A stretch of DNA of 15,265 nucleotides, taken from positions 1-15,265 of the forward strand of contig URTC01000008.1 of the NCBI GenBank assembly GCA_900550765.1, read 5' to 3'. The stretch is from an uncultured Clostridia bacterium. Lineage in GTDB: Bacteria; Bacillota; Clostridia; Christensenellales; QALW01. This document shows positions 1 to 13,916 of the stretch, piece by piece. Each line of letters opens with the position of its first letter. Within the stretch, counting starts at the first letter, position 1. The notes beneath the pieces are model-generated. The model saw nothing but the letters and a program-made list of their open reading frames with translations. It was not told the DNA's origin and did no database searches. The position numbers were made by a program, and so were the translations under genes.

Positions 1-254
1 GAGCTGTTCCTAGTACGAGAGGACCGGAATGGACGCACCGCTGGTGCACCAGTTGTCACGCCAGTGGCACAGCTGGGTAGCGAAGTACGGATTTGATAAA
101 CGCTGAAAGCATCTAAGCGTGAAACAAACCTCAAGAAGAGATATCCCACTTGAAAGAGGTAAGCCCCCTAACAGACGATTAGGTAGATAGGTCGGAGGTG
201 AAGGCGCTGTAAGGCGTAGAGCTGACCGATACTAATAGGGCGAGGGCTTAATCA
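1..254 (+). rRNA. 23S ribosomal RNA, 3' end (partial)
   Basis: This is the last quarter-kilobase of domain VI of the large-subunit rRNA; its 5' part lies outside the window. The sarcin-ricin loop core AGTACGAGAGGACCGG is at 12-27, and the typical Firmicute 3' end with GACCGATACTAATAGG and a terminal GGCTTAATC is at about 224-253. The exact mature 3' end is estimated. The following 23S-5S spacer (about 255-356) holds no tRNA, only a small GAAA-capped hairpin at 337-350. Confidence 0.97.
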
Positions 255-356
255 AGAGCATTCGAAAGAGAGAGACGGAGTATGTATTGAGCGAACTTCA
301 GTTGTGAGGGTGCGGGAAGAAAAAGAGAAGAAAACGACAGCGAAAGCTGTAAAAAT

Positions 357-473
357 TTCCGGTGGTAATGGCGAAAGGGATCACCTGTTCCCATACCGAA
401 CACAGAAGTTAAGCCTTTCAGCGCAGAGGGTACTTGGCTGGAGACGGCCCGGGAGAGTATGTCGTCGCCGGAT
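357..473 (+). rRNA. 5S ribosomal RNA
   Basis: A complete 5S rRNA of about 117 nt. The terminal helix pairs TCCGG (358-362) with CCGGA (468-472). The conserved loop segment CCATACCGAACACAGAAGTT (391-410) is present, as is the Clostridia-like GGAGACGGCCCGGGAGAGTA region. It follows 23S in the usual 16S-23S-5S order and is closed by the hairpin terminator just downstream. The ends are set by the terminal pairing and may be off by one or two bases. Confidence 0.95.
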
Positions 474-1947: not shown

Positions 1948-1962
1948 AGAAAGGTCTTGCAT

Positions 1963-2541
1963 ATGGTTATGGAAAAAAAGAAGTTGGTCTTATGCCTTAT
2001 ATCCATTGGTTGTGTGCTGTTGCTTTGCCTGACGGCGATGTGGTATATGTTTGGCCTAAAGCATGTGCATTTGCCGGATACCCTTGAAGTTCCCGATGAA
2101 GTTTTGCAGGAGGCATTTACGGGAAAAATACAGGAATATAAAGGAACTCGGTATATATCCTATTATCTTCCACAGGATGAAGCTGTAAAAAAGTTTGAAA
2201 AGAATGGGTTTAAAGCTGTTTGCAGCGGTGGATTGGCTAGTCATAAGAATGGAGGAATTCGGGAAGAGGATATTCAATCGGGGAATGAAGATTATCTTGT
2301 TCTTGCAGACGGTGCTTATATGACAAATAATGCTTGGGATTTACGTAAGGAGCCTAATAGAAAAATATTTCCATGCTATTGGTATTGGACACAGTTTTTT
2401 TATCAAAAAAATGATGTATTAATTATTGTCGAAATTGCCTGCAACGATCCGAGAAAGCCGGAGCTTCAATTGCTTTTCGATGAGATTGCCGCATATTTTA
2501 ATGGATATATTGAAGAACAGAATGCCATTTTGGAGGCGTAA
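1963..2541 (+). CDS. Membrane-anchored protein of unknown family, paralog A
   Basis: A 192-residue protein with a Lys-rich start and one hydrophobic segment (residues about 8-29), then an extracytoplasmic domain. I do not recognise the family. The Cys in ISIGC does not form a good lipobox and the hydrophobic stretch continues past it, so this is more likely a signal anchor. Hallmarks shared with the next two genes are HVHLP just after the anchor, a central DGAY, and a C-terminal PELQLLFDEIAAY helix. The ATG at 1963 is chosen because AGAAAGG lies 8 nt upstream; an ATG at 1969 is possible. It lies 15 bp after the CBM gene and is closed by its own terminator. Confidence 0.75.
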   Translation: MVMEKKKLVLCLISIGCVLLLCLTAMWYMFGLKHVHLPDTLEVPDEVLQEAFTGKIQEYKGTRYISYYLPQDEAVKKFEKNGFKAVCSGGLASHKNGGIREEDIQSGNEDYLVLADGAYMTNNAWDLRKEPNRKIFPCYWYWTQFFYQKNDVLIIVEIACNDPRKPELQLLFDEIAAYFNGYIEEQNAILEA

Positions 2542-2626: not shown

Positions 2627-2672
2627 TTAGCTGTACGAAAGAAGTAGAAAAGTAAGAAAGATGGGGAGAGAA

Positions 2673-3245
2673 ATGGCTATCCAAAAAAAGAAATTATTTA
2701 TCTGTCTTTTATCGATTGGCTGCATCATATTACTGGTGTTGACAGCTGTATGGTATGTGTTTTGCCTAAAGCATGTGCATTTGCCGGATACCCTTGAAAT
2801 TCCTGCTGAAGTTTTGCAGGAGGCGTTTACGGGAAAAATACAGGAATATAAAGGAACTCGGCATATATCTTATTATCTTCCACAGGATGAAGCTGTAAAA
2901 AAGTTTGAAAAAAATGGATTTAAAGCTGTTTGTTCGGGAAGCTTAGCAAATAATATGAATCACGGAAATGAGAAGAATTTTACACCGGAGAATGGATTCT
3001 TTGTTTTAGAAGACGGAGCTTATATGACAAGTAGTACATGGTATCTACGTAGGAAGCCAAACAGAAAGATATTTCCCAAGTATTTTTATCAGTCAAAGAT
3101 TACCTATAGAGAAGATGATCTATTAGTCGTTGTTGTTATTGACTGCAACGATCCGAGAAAGCCGGAGCTTCAGTTGCTTTTTGATGAAATTGCCGCGTAT
3201 TTTAATGGGTATATTGAACAGCAGAACGCGTTTTTAGAGGCGTAA
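2673..3245 (+). CDS. Membrane-anchored protein of unknown family, paralog B
   Basis: A 190-residue tandem duplicate of the preceding gene with the same plan: KKK start, hydrophobic anchor, HVHLP, DGAY and a C-terminal helix. From LKHVHLP to FKAVCSG, 55 of 58 residues match paralog A, and the last 33 residues match at 31. The roughly 65 residues between these blocks and the anchor are clearly more diverged, so the pair is mosaic. ATG 2673 is chosen over an in-frame ATG at 2661 because GGGGAG (2663-2668) is well placed for it. The function is unknown. The gene is a separate transcription unit between its own promoter and terminator. Confidence 0.75.
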   Translation: MAIQKKKLFICLLSIGCIILLVLTAVWYVFCLKHVHLPDTLEIPAEVLQEAFTGKIQEYKGTRHISYYLPQDEAVKKFEKNGFKAVCSGSLANNMNHGNEKNFTPENGFFVLEDGAYMTSSTWYLRRKPNRKIFPKYFYQSKITYREDDLLVVVVIDCNDPRKPELQLLFDEIAAYFNGYIEQQNAFLEA

Positions 3246-5500: not shown

Positions 5501-6148
5501 ATGTTTCTTATTGTTCTTGAGATTTTAGGGCTTGTTTCTTTTGCAGTTTCCGGTGTGGTTACTGCTATGCGTAAAAAAATGGATATTTTTGGCGCCTATG
5601 TATTGGCGCTGATTACCTGCTTCGGCGGAGGGGTACTGCGTGACCTTATTTTAGGCCGGACACCGCCCGCGGTATTCCGTCAGCCTATTTATCCGATTAC
5701 GGCGACAATCACGGCGGCCGTATTTCTAATAGCGCCGCTGCGCCGCAGTATTATGAGAAGAAAGAGAATATATGAATTTTTGTTGTTTTTGATGGATTCA
5801 ATTGGCTTAGGCGCTTTTACGGTTGTAGGGGTGACTGCATCAATTGCAGCCTTTCCGGAATATAATTTTATGCTGCATATTTTTATTGGCATTATTACCG
5901 GCGTTGGCGGCGGAGTCCTTCGGGATACGTTGGCGGGGGACATTCCGTATATTTTTGTAAAGCATATCTATGCATTGGCTTCCTTGATCGGTGCGGCAGT
6001 ATGCACGGCGCTTTGGAAGGTTACGGGAGCCGCAGCCGCAGCAGGTATTGGTGCGGCTGTAGTTTTGCTTATTCGCTGTTTTTCGGCATATTATAAGTGG
6101 AATCTTCCTGCACTGGAGGAAGAAAAAAAGCAGGAGGAATCTTCATAG
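5501..6148 (+). CDS. TRIC/UPF0126-family membrane channel (YicG/YadS-like)
   Basis: A 215-residue integral membrane protein of the bacterial TRIC cation-channel family, also annotated as UPF0126 or putative glycine transporter. Two homologous three-helix repeats are visible. The first has LEILGLVSFAVSG then FGGGVLRDLILGRTPP; the second has DSIGLGAFTVVG then VGGGVLRDTLAGDIPYIF. The repeated GGGVLRD motif is the family hallmark, and the length is normal. ATG 5501 is chosen because family members begin directly at the first helix and GCGGGGA lies upstream; the longer frame overlaps the promoter. The C-terminal tail is Glu/Lys rich and cytosolic in appearance. The transported ion or solute is not determined by sequence. 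Confidence 0.9.
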   Translation: MFLIVLEILGLVSFAVSGVVTAMRKKMDIFGAYVLALITCFGGGVLRDLILGRTPPAVFRQPIYPITATITAAVFLIAPLRRSIMRRKRIYEFLLFLMDSIGLGAFTVVGVTASIAAFPEYNFMLHIFIGIITGVGGGVLRDTLAGDIPYIFVKHIYALASLIGAAVCTALWKVTGAAAAAGIGAAVVLLIRCFSAYYKWNLPALEEEKKQEESS

Positions 6149-6171
6149 TTTGGCGGTGAGCCGCCAGTGCT

Positions 6172-6213
6172 AAAAAAGTAACCCCGCAGCAAATTTTGCT
6201 GCGGGGCTGTTTT
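6172..6213. terminator. Bidirectional intrinsic terminator
   Basis: A GC-rich stem, CCCCGCAGCAAA (6182-6193) with TTTGCTGCGGGG (6195-6206), separates the TRIC gene from the repeat region. Rightward it is followed by only four Ts (6210-6213). Leftward it is followed by TTACTTTTTT (6181-6172), a better T-run, so it is also well suited to end the minus-strand transcript from 6621. A smaller GGCGG/CCGCC hairpin lies at 6152-6165. Confidence 0.85.
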
Positions 6214-6306
6214 ATGCATTTTATGATATATCTCATTTCTGCTTCTATTGGTTCAATAGAAAAATTATTTATTGTATATGATATTTAATTTTTTTGCTAA
6301 ATGAAA

Positions 6307-6613
6307 CATTGGACTCACATCTTCCTTTTAGATTTTGTAAATGAAAAGGAGAAGAAACATACGCAACACTCCATAAAAATTTACAAAAAGGGAAAACTAA
6401 ATTATAAAGGAATAGGAACCTTGGTTAGACGGTTATCATTGGACTCCCTCTTTCTTTTTTAAAGTTTGATAAAAATTGCATTTCTGAACATAAGATCATA
6501 CCATCCTTTACAGAAGCTTATTTTATCAAATTACTGTCCCATTGGATTCACGTCTTTCTTTTAAATTTTTAAGGTTAGAAATATTAAATTCCCATTGGAC
6601 TCCCTCTTTCTTT
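6307..6613 (-). repeat. Four direct copies of a 21-23 nt motif in a-b-a-b order
   Basis: Copies lie at 6593-6613, 6540-6561, 6437-6457 and 6307-6329 in minus-strand order. Copies 1 and 3 (type a) read GAAAGAGGGAGTCCAATG at their end. Copies 2 and 4 (type b) have GACGTGAATCCAATG and GATGTGAGTCCAATG and are one base longer. TCCAATG and the A/G-rich lead-in are constant. Start-to-start distances are 53, 103 and 130 bp, and the intervening sequences differ, each containing an inverted repeat. Confidence 0.85.
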
Positions 6614-6627
6614 CTATTTACACTTTC

Positions 6628-6656
6628 ATTATACACGGGAGAAAGTGAAAAGTCAA
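6628..6656 (-). promoter_or_regulatory. Strong minus-strand sigma-A promoter for the repeat RNA
   Basis: On the minus strand, -35 TTGACT (6651-6656), spacer of exactly 17 bp, -10 TATAAT (6628-6633). Predicted start about 6621, just ahead of the first repeat. A CACTTTC/GAAAGTG inverted repeat (6621-6627, 6641-6647) spans the -10. Confidence 0.72.
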
Positions 6657-6670
6657 TATCCAAAATAAAA

Positions 6671-6688
6671 AAATTCTTACAAGAATTT
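6671..6688. promoter_or_regulatory. 18-bp palindrome between divergent promoters
   Basis: AAATTCTT (6671-6678) and AAGAATTT (6681-6688) are perfect inverted repeats around AC. It lies 15 bp upstream of the minus-strand -35 and about 95 bp upstream of the clpB operon -35. Low base complexity makes chance origin possible. The rest of 6690-6783 is AT-rich and holds only a small ATAAAT-A-ATTTAT palindrome at 6762-6774. Confidence 0.35.
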
Positions 6689-6783
6689 ATCACTAAAACA
6701 GCAAAATAAAGCAGAAAAAAATAACGACAAAAGAGATTCGGAATAAAATATATAAAATTCGATAAATAATTTATATAAAATAC

Positions 6784-6812
6784 TTGACAAATTTATTTGA
6801 TTAGATTATAAT
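6784..6812 (+). promoter_or_regulatory. Perfect-consensus sigma-A promoter of the RHH-clpB operon
   Basis: -35 TTGACA (6784-6789), 17-bp spacer, -10 TATAAT (6807-6812), start near 6819. A small inverted repeat, CAAAT/ATTTG (6788-6799), lies between the two boxes and could be an operator. No CIRCE (HrcA) or CtsR heptad repeat is visible, though these control clpB in many Firmicutes. Confidence 0.8.
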
Positions 6813-6866
6813 GAGAACATCAAAAGGGGCAAACGGTCTGAATGCCCGGAATGGAGGAGAGTATCT

Positions 6867-7514
6867 TTGAGTAAGAGTTTATATAGTGTAATGCTGATGG
6901 ATGAGGTAGTACTGGAAATCGATCGGCAGGCGCTGCAGCAGAATACGAACCGTTCCAACCTGATTAACCAGATCCTGGCCGAATATGTCTCCTTTACCAC
7001 GCCGGAGATGCGTATCAGCAATATTTTTAAAACAATAGAGGATTTTATCAATAGCTGTGAAGCGGATATTGTTCCTTACGTTGCACCGCATCAAAGTACC
7101 ATGTCATTAAAAAGCAGCTTGGAATATCGGTATCGACCTACGATTAAATACGATGTAGAGCTGTACCGGGAGCCTGACGGCGGTGCGATCGGTCAGCTGA
7201 GTGTCGTATTCCGCACACAGTCGCCGTCTTTGATTGAGGCAATGAATCGTTTTTTTAAACTGTGGGCGCATGTGGAAAAGAAGCATGGGAGAAATACCGG
7301 TATACGGTATGCTTTATATGAAGGTCGTTTTATCCGCAGTATTACTGTTCCGCAGGATAAGAATTATACCAGTCGCCAAATTGCCGATGCAATTTCAAAT
7401 TATATCCGAATGTTTGATACCGTTATGAAAGGTTATTTAAGCGGTAAATATGACGAAAATGCAATTGAAACCATGTATAAGGAATACCTGGATAAGGGGG
7501 TAGATTTAATATGA
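6867..7514 (+). CDS. Ribbon-helix-helix-like protein coupled to clpB
   Basis: A 215-residue protein. Residues about 5-42 have the pattern of a ribbon-helix-helix (CopG/Arc-type) DNA-binding domain: a short strand (LYSVMLMD), then a helix, NRSNLINQ at the turn, and a second helix ending AEYVSF. The remaining 170 residues form a domain I do not recognise, with a [14 protein letters not shown] segment and a C-terminal helical [13 protein letters not shown] segment. The start is TTG 6867, supported by GGAGGA at 6853-6858 and by the absence of a better ATG; the first ATG (6891) would remove the strand. The stop overlaps the clpB start in ATGA, so translation is coupled. Autorepression of the operon or co-function with ClpB is inference. 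Confidence 0.75.
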
Positions 7515-11731: not shown

Positions 11732-12823
11732 ATGGCAAAATATGATGTAGCTTGTTATCATTGGTCCAACTGGCATCCTACAGAATACAATGATATAAAG
11801 CGCGGTAAGGGATGGACGGAGTGGGAATATACCAAGCGTGCGATTCCCCGTTTTCCGGGGCATGCGCAGCCCAAAATTCCCATGTGGGGATATTTGGACG
11901 ATTCTCAAATGGATACGGTGGAGCTCCAGATCAATACTGCGGCTGATCACGGCCTTACGGCGTTTATTTTTGACTGGGGCTATCGGGGGAATAATACCGT
12001 TCTGGAGCAGTTCCTAAAGGCTCCCAGCCGTAGCCGGCTGAAATTCGGCCTGATGCAGTGCGGCGGCGCAAAGGATTATGACGATACCTTGGGAATGTTT
12101 GATTATATTATTAACGAATACTTCAAGCAGCCTAACTACTGGAAAGTGGACGGTGCCTGCTATTATTCCATTTATGAACTGGGTAAACATGTGCATGCCT
12201 GGGGCGGGGTGGAAAAAGCCGCTGAGCTGCTGCAGATTTTCCGCCAAAAGGCCGCGGACGCAGGCTTAAAGATTCATTTAGTAGCGGTGGAGTGGGGACT
12301 GCAGGAGTTCTGCTGCAAGGAACTGGATCCTAAGGAACTGGTTGAAAAGCTGGGCATCGATGCGCTTACAAGTTATGTTTGGGCGCACAATACCGTTCCC
12401 CAGTGGCCCTGCGGCGATTACAGCGAGTGGGCAGAGAGTGCCTATGAAGAGATGAAGAAGATTGAACAAAAATATCCGGTACCGTATCATACGCATGTTT
12501 CTATGGGCTGGGATCCTTCACCGCGCTGTCCGGAAACTATGAAGTATTATGAGGGCGGCCCGCTGATGTATCATACTCTTTCGGGAGAATATGAAATTCA
12601 GCATACGCCGTATTTTTCCTCCATTATTAAAAACAATACGCCGGAGGAATTTCGGCGTGCTTTGCTGGCGGCTAAGCGTCATATGGATGATACCAATCCC
12701 AAAAATAAAATTGTAACGCTATATGCCTGGAACGAGTGGACCGAGGGCGGCTATTTAGAGCCGGATTCGGTAAACGGATACGGGTATTTGGAAGCGATAA
12801 AAAGTGTGTTTGGAGAGAACTGA
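11732..12823 (+). CDS. GH99-like WbsX-family protein, copy A
   Basis: A 363-residue protein of the WbsX family (glycosyltransferase WbsX / glycoside hydrolase family 99-like domain). Signature segments are YHWSNWHPTEYND (9-21), GKGWTEWEYTKRA (25-37), PRFPGHAQPKIPMWGYLDD (39-57), VAVEWG in the middle and WNEWTEGGYLEPD (about 333-345). No signal peptide is seen, so it probably works in the cytosol on imported oligosaccharides. GH99 enzymes are endo-acting mannosidases, but WbsX-type proteins are mostly uncharacterised. The start has AAGGCGG 9 nt upstream. The next WbsX gene begins one base after this stop. Confidence 0.85.
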   Translation: MAKYDVACYHWSNWHPTEYNDIKRGKGWTEWEYTKRAIPRFPGHAQPKIPMWGYLDDSQMDTVELQINTAADHGLTAFIFDWGYRGNNTVLEQFLKAPSRSRLKFGLMQCGGAKDYDDTLGMFDYIINEYFKQPNYWKVDGACYYSIYELGKHVHAWGGVEKAAELLQIFRQKAADAGLKIHLVAVEWGLQEFCCKELDPKELVEKLGIDALTSYVWAHNTVPQWPCGDYSEWAESAYEEMKKIEQKYPVPYHTHVSMGWDPSPRCPETMKYYEGGPLMYHTLSGEYEIQHTPYFSSIIKNNTPEEFRRALLAAKRHMDDTNPKNKIVTLYAWNEWTEGGYLEPDSVNGYGYLEAIKSVFGEN

Positions 12824-12824
12824 T

Positions 12825-13916
12825 ATGAAAAGAGAATATACAGTAGCAGCCTATTACTTTCCCCAGTGGCATCATGATCCTCAGCATGAGGAATTGCTGG
12901 GCTAAAGCAGAGATTGGAGCGAGTGGGACGTGTTAAAATATGCCGTTCCTCGTTTTCCCGGACATAACCAGCCTAAAGTTCCTGTGTGGGGATATTTGGA
13001 TGAATCCGATCCTAAAACCAGTGAAATTCAAATTGACGCGGCGGCAGACCATGGAATCGATGTGTTTATTTATGACTGGTACTGGGATATGAATGGAGAG
13101 GATACCGGTAAATTTTTGCATTCTGCCCTGGAAAAAGGTTTTTTAAAGGCTAAAAACAGAAGCAGAATGAAATTCGGTTTGATGCTGTGCAATCACCGGG
13201 AACTTTCCCGTGAGCGGTGGGAACTGCTGACAGATTATGTGATTGAAAATTATTTTCACCTGCCGGAATATTGGGAGGTGGACGGAGGCAAGTATTTTTC
13301 CCTGTATGAACTTTCTACATTTGTAAAAGGGTTAGGCGGTATGCAGCAGGCGGCTGAGGCCATCGAGTCGTTCCGCAAAAAGGCGGCAGCTAAGGGGTAT
13401 AAGCTGCATATAAACTTTGTAGAATGGGGATTGCAGAATGAGGCATTGACCGGAAGCGATAAAAATAAAGCTGTGGAGATCTGCAAAGGGGATAGTGTTA
13501 CCAGTTATGTGTGGATTCATAACTTTGTACCTAAGGCACCGCTTTATGCGCCGTATGCTGATTGGCGTGACGGTGCAGTCCCCTATTGGGAAAAGTTTAG
13601 AAATACGTTCTCAGTTGAATATTATCCCATTGTTTCTATGGGGTGGGATTCCAGCGGACGCTTTGATCCGCAGGAAGAATATGTGGCGGATCCCAACGGT
13701 GGCTATTATTGTACGATCATGAGTGAGAATACCCCCGAGGAATTTGAAAAGGCTCTGCAGATGAGTAAGGATTTTTTGGATGCCGGCAAAAACCGCAATA
13801 AGATCGTGACCTTGTATGCCTGGAATGAATGGACGGAGGGTGGCTATTTGGAGCCGGAGAAAAAATATGGTTACGGGTACTTAGAAGCCATTAAAAAGGT
13901 ATTCGGCACAAAATAA
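12825..13916 (+). pseudogene. GH99-like WbsX-family protein, copy B, with an in-frame stop
   Basis: A tandem paralog of copy A, 363 codons before the stop. Its full frame begins at ATG 12825 (GGAGAG 7 nt upstream) with AAYYFPQWHHDPQHEELLG, the normal family N-terminus. A TAA at 12903-12905 interrupts it where copy A has Lys in RGKGW; AAA to TAA is one change. After the stop the frame continues undisturbed with SRDWSEWDVLKYAVPRFPGH, FVEWGLQ and WNEWTEGGYLEPE. A GTG at 12930 could give a 328-residue product but lacks an obvious SD site and would drop the first strand and the TEW-type motif. Either it is decaying, or it is read through or restarted. Confidence 0.8.

What the first reader, a model, noticed from the sequence alone, without database searches (positions are those of the whole stretch)
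6172..6656. Possible new repeat-bearing RNA divergent from the clpB operon
A gene-free stretch has a full minus-strand transcription unit: promoter TTGACT-17-TATAAT, then about 450 nt, then a GC stem with a T-run on the minus side. Inside are four copies of a 21-23 nt motif (core GAGUCCAAUG) interleaved with non-homologous stem-loops. Preserved motifs with different but still paired intervening sequence suggest a structured RNA presenting several protein- or RNA-binding sites, as sponge RNAs of the CsrB/RsmZ kind do. The class is not one I know.
Basis: partly seen in the sequence, partly recalled or inferred. Interest (0 to 1): 0.75.

Follow-up and report, generated by a model that had tools for sequence, protein, structure and literature searches.

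The report
RNA with repeated ribosome-docking-like sites
A gene-free stretch of a Clostridia-type bacterial genome probably makes a small RNA that repeats a ribosome-landing-like signal four or five times in front of almost no coding sequence, so it may act as a decoy; that it is made at all, and what it does, is untested.

Summary
The longest exact repeat is 21 nt; 1000 shuffles gave at most 16. The interleaved stem-loops are only partly supported: without the terminator the fold is ordinary, z -0.84. New here: each repeat (minus strand, AAAGRAAGA..G.GA.UCCA then AUG) resembles, with gaps, the complement of the single-stranded 16S rRNA 3' tail and ends in AUG. A fifth site (6489-6509), not clearly a repeat copy, shares this. 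Five of 13 AUGs in the 411-nt body have strong tail pairing; 1000 shuffles gave at most two (threshold chosen after a first look). The frames opened have 3, 3, 10, 4 and 14 codons. Best reading: a stand-alone small RNA presenting Shine-Dalgarno-like decoys, for 30S subunits or for C-rich small RNAs as with RosA of Bacillus subtilis. CsrB-like action is not shown. No Rfam family matches at its threshold. No diverged relative was reached, so covariation is untested. One metagenomic protein (P0123) joins this promoter and the first two repeats to a different upstream sequence, hinting at a second genomic context.

The parts
6628..6656 (-). Promoter-like site TTGACT-17-TATAAT; start of transcription expected near 6621
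   Evidence: 11 of 12 consensus positions; start point inferred
6593..6613 (-). Repeat copy 1, AAAGAAAGAGGGAGUCCAAUG
   Evidence: tail pairing -17.5 kcal/mol
6540..6561 (-). Repeat copy 2, AAAGAAAGACGUGAAUCCAAUG
   Evidence: tail pairing -13.6 kcal/mol
6489..6509 (-). Fifth tail-complementary site ending in AUG, AAAGGAUGGUAUGAUCUUAUG; not clearly a repeat copy
6437..6457 (-). Repeat copy 3, identical to copy 1 over 21 nt
   Evidence: tail pairing -17.5 kcal/mol
6307..6328 (-). Repeat copy 4, AAAGGAAGAUGUGAGUCCAAUG
   Evidence: tail pairing -13.1 kcal/mol
6584..6595 (-). Micro-frame MGI-stop behind copy 1
   Evidence: translation not shown
6531..6542 (-). Micro-frame MGQ-stop behind copy 2
   Evidence: translation not shown
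6459..6491 (-). Micro-frame of 10 codons (MFRNAIFIKL) behind the fifth site
   Evidence: translation not shown
6425..6439 (-). Micro-frame MITV-stop behind copy 3
   Evidence: translation not shown
6265..6309 (-). Micro-frame of 14 codons (MFHLAKKLNIIYNK) behind copy 4
   Evidence: translation not shown
6465..6530 (-). Possible hairpin between copies 2 and 3 (contains the fifth site)
   Evidence: z -2.33, -1.59 for a longer cut
6333..6388 (-). Hairpin between copies 3 and 4
   Evidence: z -3.85 for 6330-6400; -1.43 for the whole interval
6180..6208 (-). Terminator-like hairpin followed by a T-run; also terminator-like on the + strand
   Evidence: -23.1 kcal/mol, z -5.92

Best explanation
The stretch is a stand-alone small-RNA gene: promoter at 6656-6628, transcript of about 450 nt, intrinsic terminator at 6208-6180. 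Its repeated motif is a translation-initiation mimic: a long, gapped complement to the single-stranded 3' tail of 16S rRNA, immediately followed by AUG, present four times plus one fifth site with the same property, each opening a frame of only 3 to 14 codons. Most likely it works as a decoy: the sites are bound by whatever recognises Shine-Dalgarno regions, either 30S subunits (loaded on near-empty frames, lowering mRNA loading) or C-rich small RNAs (sponged). Shown by computation: repeats, pairing potential, AUG placement, micro-frames. Inferred: transcription, binding, decoy action.
For: Pairing with the tail beats letter shuffles of each copy: 1, 1, 2 and 28 of 1000 as good for copies 1-4. 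Shuffled tail complements reach the summed alignment score of the four copies in 2 of 2000. Of 13 AUGs in the 411-nt RNA body, 5 have upstream pairing of -12 kcal/mol or better; 1000 dinucleotide shuffles gave 0 (932), 1 (63) or 2 (5). Of 539 AUGs in the window, both strands, 15 reach this: these 5, three probable gene starts (580, 7511, 10245) and 7 others. The + strand of the same stretch has none at -10 or better. The tail sequence was seen in a Clostridia record. A viral contig has AAAGAGGGAGTCCAATG in front of what reads as an open frame (frame not called). Precedents: RosA (passages), SprF1 (review passages).
Against: No transcript data. The copies are homologous, so their counts are not independent, and the -12 threshold was chosen after seeing first scores. 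Copies 2 and 4 lack a canonical Shine-Dalgarno core (GACGUGA, GAUGUGA), while UCCA, free to vary in an ordinary ribosome site, is invariant. The best tail-like alignment score in the RNA (22) is reached by 11 of 1000 shuffles of the RNA itself. In the predicted fold the SD parts are mostly paired (mean unpaired 0.12 to 0.48). The window's own 16S gene is not in view. No diverged relative was found to show selection.
Confidence: 0.45

Rival explanations
1. The stretch is a small messenger for tiny peptides: each site is an ordinary ribosome-binding site with start codon, and the frames of 10 and 14 codons (and perhaps the shorter ones) are the product.
For: Five sites combine tail pairing and AUG. 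The 10-codon frame behind the fifth site stops just before copy 3, as does a 10-codon frame (MFLLLFIYKI, AUG at 6360) just before copy 4; four sites are spaced 53, 51 and 52 nt.
Against: Three of the five frames have only 3 or 4 codons. The AUG at 6360 has weak tail pairing, -7.5. The repeat ends at the AUG and the coding parts do not resemble each other, so the start region rather than a peptide is what is repeated.
Confidence: 0.15
2. The RNA is a sponge for an RNA-binding protein of the CsrA kind or another protein that reads GARUCCAAUG.
For: Four copies of one motif in one RNA, invariant UCCAAUG; a GGA lies in or right beside each copy.
Against: The GGA is at different places in the copies, and the predicted fold does not present the motif in loops. 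No Rfam family of this kind matches. Whether the organism has csrA was not tested, as no genome is held.
Confidence: 0.07
3. The repeats are decaying sequence duplications in an AT-rich gap, perhaps of a ribosome-binding region or of a dispersed element, without function.
For: Ordinary fold without terminator; four-copy 10-mer families arise in 3 of 60 shuffles; Subdoligranulum has the neighbouring gene pair without the motif; promoter- and terminator-like sites are common by chance in such DNA.
Against: A 21-nt exact repeat and kept motif letters while the intervals differ; a near-perfect promoter match and a strong terminator in the right order.
Confidence: 0.25

Closest known systems
RosA of Bacillus subtilis (sponge RNA of RoxS and FsrA)
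   Same: Own promoter and terminator; several G-rich sites; one may be the Shine-Dalgarno of a 7-residue frame (passages)
   Different: About 229 nt with three G-rich regions; repeats of the present kind are not mentioned in the passages seen; two of the four copies here are not G-rich
SprF1 of Staphylococcus aureus (ribosome-binding antitoxin RNA)
   Same: A purine-rich sequence binds ribosomes and lowers mRNA loading (review passages)
   Different: A type I antitoxin with an antisense toxin partner and a site at its 5' end; no such partner was looked for or seen here
RsaI of Staphylococcus aureus
   Same: Two G-rich regions that sponge RsaE (passages)
   Different: No repeat array followed by AUG in the passages seen
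Minigenes (two-codon frames)
   Same: Near-empty frames acting in translation control (abstract)
   Different: The published one acts in cis within a toxin-antitoxin operon; here a terminator follows and the next gene is convergent
CsrB/RsmZ
   Same: Many copies of one short site in one RNA (family description recalled)
   Different: GGA not at a fixed place and not in predicted loops here

Membership tests
CsrB/RsmZ sponge RNAs | Repeated GGA-containing motif (recalled) | tested here: inconclusive
   GGA inside copies 1, 3 and 4 at differing places; for copy 2 only just after the AUG
CsrB/RsmZ sponge RNAs | Motifs shown in hairpin loops (recalled) | tested here: not met
   Single-sequence prediction only: motifs mostly paired, not in loops
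CsrB/RsmZ sponge RNAs | Match to an Rfam covariance model | tested here: not met
RosA-type sponge RNA | Stand-alone RNA with promoter and intrinsic terminator | tested here: met
   by consensus only; no transcript seen
RosA-type sponge RNA | G-rich regions complementary to C-rich small RNAs | tested here: inconclusive
   Copies 1 and 3 G-rich, 2 and 4 not; no genome held in which to look for partners
Ribosome-binding small RNA (SprF1 kind) | Binding to ribosomes | not testable with these tools
   Only pairing potential with the 16S tail computed
Any Rfam release 15 family | Score at or above the gathering threshold | tested here: not met
   Only 23S and 5S rRNA in the window; 15 weak matches in 6150-6870, lowest E 0.038, all below their thresholds
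Conserved structured RNA class | Covariation in relatives | not tested
   No diverged relative obtained

The most novel reading that the evidence does not exclude
A dispersed small RNA built of repeated near-complete complements of the 16S 3' tail, each ending in AUG with a near-empty frame, that captures 30S subunits as a multivalent decoy and so tunes global translation initiation.
Probability: 0.13. Interest if true: 0.78.

Novelty: new variant of a known kind. Interest (0 to 1): 0.42.

Why it matters
Small RNAs that imitate ribosome-binding sites or dock on ribosomes are known one by one (RosA, RsaI, SprF1). An RNA whose repeated element is a long complement of the 16S tail plus AUG, in four or five copies, would be an unusually plain multivalent design. 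It would make it directly testable whether bacteria titrate 30S subunits, or C-rich small RNAs, with a dedicated RNA.

Tried and rejected
CsrB/RsmZ: not adopted, because the GGA is not at a fixed place and the motifs are not in predicted loops; not strictly excluded. Known Rfam class: none at threshold. Phage or plasmid relatives: blastn of the stretch gave only partial matches covering at most 14% of the query among the rows listed. Viral contigs: one single-motif hit lies in front of what reads as an open frame. Of four double-motif hits, those in L004 and L005 lie in long open frames; L006 and L007 look like coding repeats by spacing and letters only. Two further motif scans were empty, as were three protein-guided scans of viral contigs.

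Neighbouring gene: 1818 related proteins, of which the best 120 were listed and the few with an organism name are Oscillospiraceae, Ruminococcaceae or Clostridia MAGs. The single scan of genome contigs, with one sequence and exact peptide patterns, returned two weak gammaproteobacterial loci; an alignment query might have reached more. A Subdoligranulum plasmid record has a copG-like gene (36% identity) before clpB and no (A/G)TCCAATG in the 12,580 bases fetched. Tandem Repeats Finder did not report the array, only a 13-nt period at 6610-6636. Terminal inverted repeats of a mobile element: one AT-rich match scored 28 against at most 25 in 200 shuffles, judged uninformative low-complexity sequence. 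Pfam, PHROGs and NCBIfam: nothing for P0123; tblastn of P0123 in phages gave 4 matches with E of 4 or worse, in plasmids none. Pairing of the RNA with neighbouring gene starts was computed without a control and is not used.

Papers: PMC8216469, PMC9217828 and PMC8938821 seen as passages; PMC8708949 as outline with abstract; others only in search listings (one search found none). I make no claim that this RNA is absent from print beyond these nine searches.

Full report
What is there. On the minus strand between the gene ending at 6148 (convergent, + strand) and the copG-like/clpB genes (start 6867), a promoter-like site TTGACT-17-TATAAT (6656-6628, 11 of 12) is followed by a GC-rich terminator-like hairpin at 6208-6180. 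The hairpin folds at -23.1 kcal/mol, z -5.92, and is also terminator-like on the + strand, so it may serve the convergent gene. No known RNA family matches at threshold: in the whole window only 23S and 5S rRNA at the left end. With permissive thresholds 15 weak matches appear in 6150-6870, the lowest E being 0.038, to a frameshift element on the + strand over the terminator.

Repeats. Four direct copies lie at 6593, 6540, 6437 and 6307. On the minus strand they read AAAGAAAGAGGGAGUCCAAUG (copies 1 and 3, identical over 21 nt), AAAGAAAGACGUGAAUCCAAUG (copy 2) and AAAGGAAGAUGUGAGUCCAAUG (copy 4). The longest exact repeat in 1000 dinucleotide shuffles of the 411-nt body was 16 nt against 21 observed. 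A looser measure is not impressive: four-member 10-mer families arose in 3 of 60 shuffles. Copies 2 and 4 agree at 87% over 30 nt, so the order is A-B-A-B.

Structure. The RNA from 6622 with terminator folds at z -3.76, but without the terminator at z -0.84, with 38 of 200 shuffles as good. Intervals between motifs give z +0.66, -2.33, -1.43 and -2.02. Two hairpins, 6465-6530 and 6333-6388, are plausible; the first interval has none. The claim of preserved motifs among different but paired intervals is therefore only half supported, and no relatives were available for covariation.

What the motif resembles. Before its AUG the motif aligns, with gaps, to the complement of the 16S rRNA 3' tail, AGAAAGGAGGUGAUCCA. 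The tail was recalled at first and then seen as GGCTGGATCACCTCCTTTCTA in a Clostridia record, in 2 of the 3 copies fetched; the window's own 16S gene is not visible. Predicted pairing of copies 1-4 with the tail is -17.5, -13.6, -17.5 and -13.1 kcal/mol, reached by 1, 1, 2 and 28 of 1000 letter shuffles of each copy. Shuffled tail complements reach the summed alignment score in 2 of 2000. Against this, the best single alignment score in the RNA (22) is reached by 11 of 1000 dinucleotide shuffles of the RNA, and other places in the window score 20-21. In a scan for pairing of -13 or better, 3 sites fall in the RNA body against 0 to 2 in 400 shuffles; in the window 29 sites pass on both strands, 6 of them close before an AUG, 3 of those 6 here.

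Start codons. All four copies end in AUG, and a fifth site, AAAGGAUGGUAUGAUCUUAUG (6509-6489), not clearly a repeat copy, pairs with the tail at -13.6 kcal/mol and also ends in AUG. Of 13 AUGs in the RNA body, 5 have upstream pairing of -12 or better; 1000 shuffles gave 0 in 932, 1 in 63, 2 in 5. The + strand of the same stretch has none at -10 or better. In the whole window 15 of 539 AUGs pass: these 5, three at probable gene starts (580, 7511, 10245) and 7 others (assignment to starts by comparison). The threshold was set after the first scores were seen, and because the four copies are related this is in effect two independent observations, the motif and the fifth site. The frames opened have 3 (MGI), 3 (MGQ), 10 (MFRNAIFIKL), 4 (MITV) and 14 (MFHLAKKLNIIYNK) codons. 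The AUGs at transcript positions 27, 80, 131 and 183 are spaced 53, 51 and 52 nt; that of copy 4 is at 313. The regular spacing may be chance.

Distribution. No whole genome is held for the window. The copG-like protein has 1818 relatives, of which 120 were listed; the few with organism names are Oscillospiraceae, Ruminococcaceae or Clostridia MAGs. The one genome-contig scan found two weak gammaproteobacterial matches. Frames that happen to overlap the RNA served as probes of the protein collection. The + frame 6304-6462 found one protein, 98% identical. The minus frame 6529-6693 found two: the window's own and P0123. P0123 matches 6696-6529 at 100% over 56 residues, but its first 30 residues have no match in the window better than chance. 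So the promoter and the first two repeats occur next to another upstream sequence: a second copy, a rearranged relative, or a chimeric contig. The DNA of that contig was not available. Subdoligranulum has a copG-like gene before clpB without the motif in the 12.6 kb fetched.

Mechanism. I favour a decoy: a stand-alone RNA offering several Shine-Dalgarno-like sites. Two precedents frame it. RosA of Bacillus subtilis has three G-rich regions with complementarity to C-rich small RNAs, and one may be the Shine-Dalgarno of a 7-residue frame (passages). SprF1 binds ribosomes through a purine-rich sequence and lowers mRNA loading (review passages). I cannot choose firmly between the ribosome and the small-RNA branch. 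For the ribosome branch speaks that copies 2 and 4, which lack a G-rich core, keep the outer tail-complementary letters; against it, that they lack a canonical core and that the predicted fold mostly hides the sites (unpaired 0.12 to 0.48).

Verdict. A real repeat array with the signals of a small-RNA gene, reinterpreted from a CsrB-like sponge to an array of ribosome-site mimics. It is filed in no family. Transcription and function are unproven; I give about one chance in four that it has no function.

Noticed in passing
window 6766-7514: A copG-like protein without a Pfam match sits directly before clpB; a similar pair occurs in a Subdoligranulum plasmid record (L008), and the promoter stretch (AATAATTTATATAAA, then TTGACAAATT) is shared by both.
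   Followed up: partly
window 6529-6696; protein P0123: A metagenomic protein joins the RNA's promoter and first two repeats to a different upstream sequence.
   Followed up: partly
window 1957-2541 and 2661-3245: Two very similar 194-residue proteins in tandem; the first has no Pfam match, the second was not scanned.
   Followed up: no
window 11732-12823 and 12930-13916: Two similar proteins in tandem; the first matches the glycosyltransferase WbsX family, the second was not scanned.
   Followed up: no
window 1-473: End of 23S rRNA and a 5S rRNA: the window begins at the end of an rRNA operon.
   Followed up: no
record NZ_CP154629.1 (L009): A 2.6-Mb record labelled plasmid carries six 16S rRNA matches, so it is probably a chromosome.
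   Followed up: no
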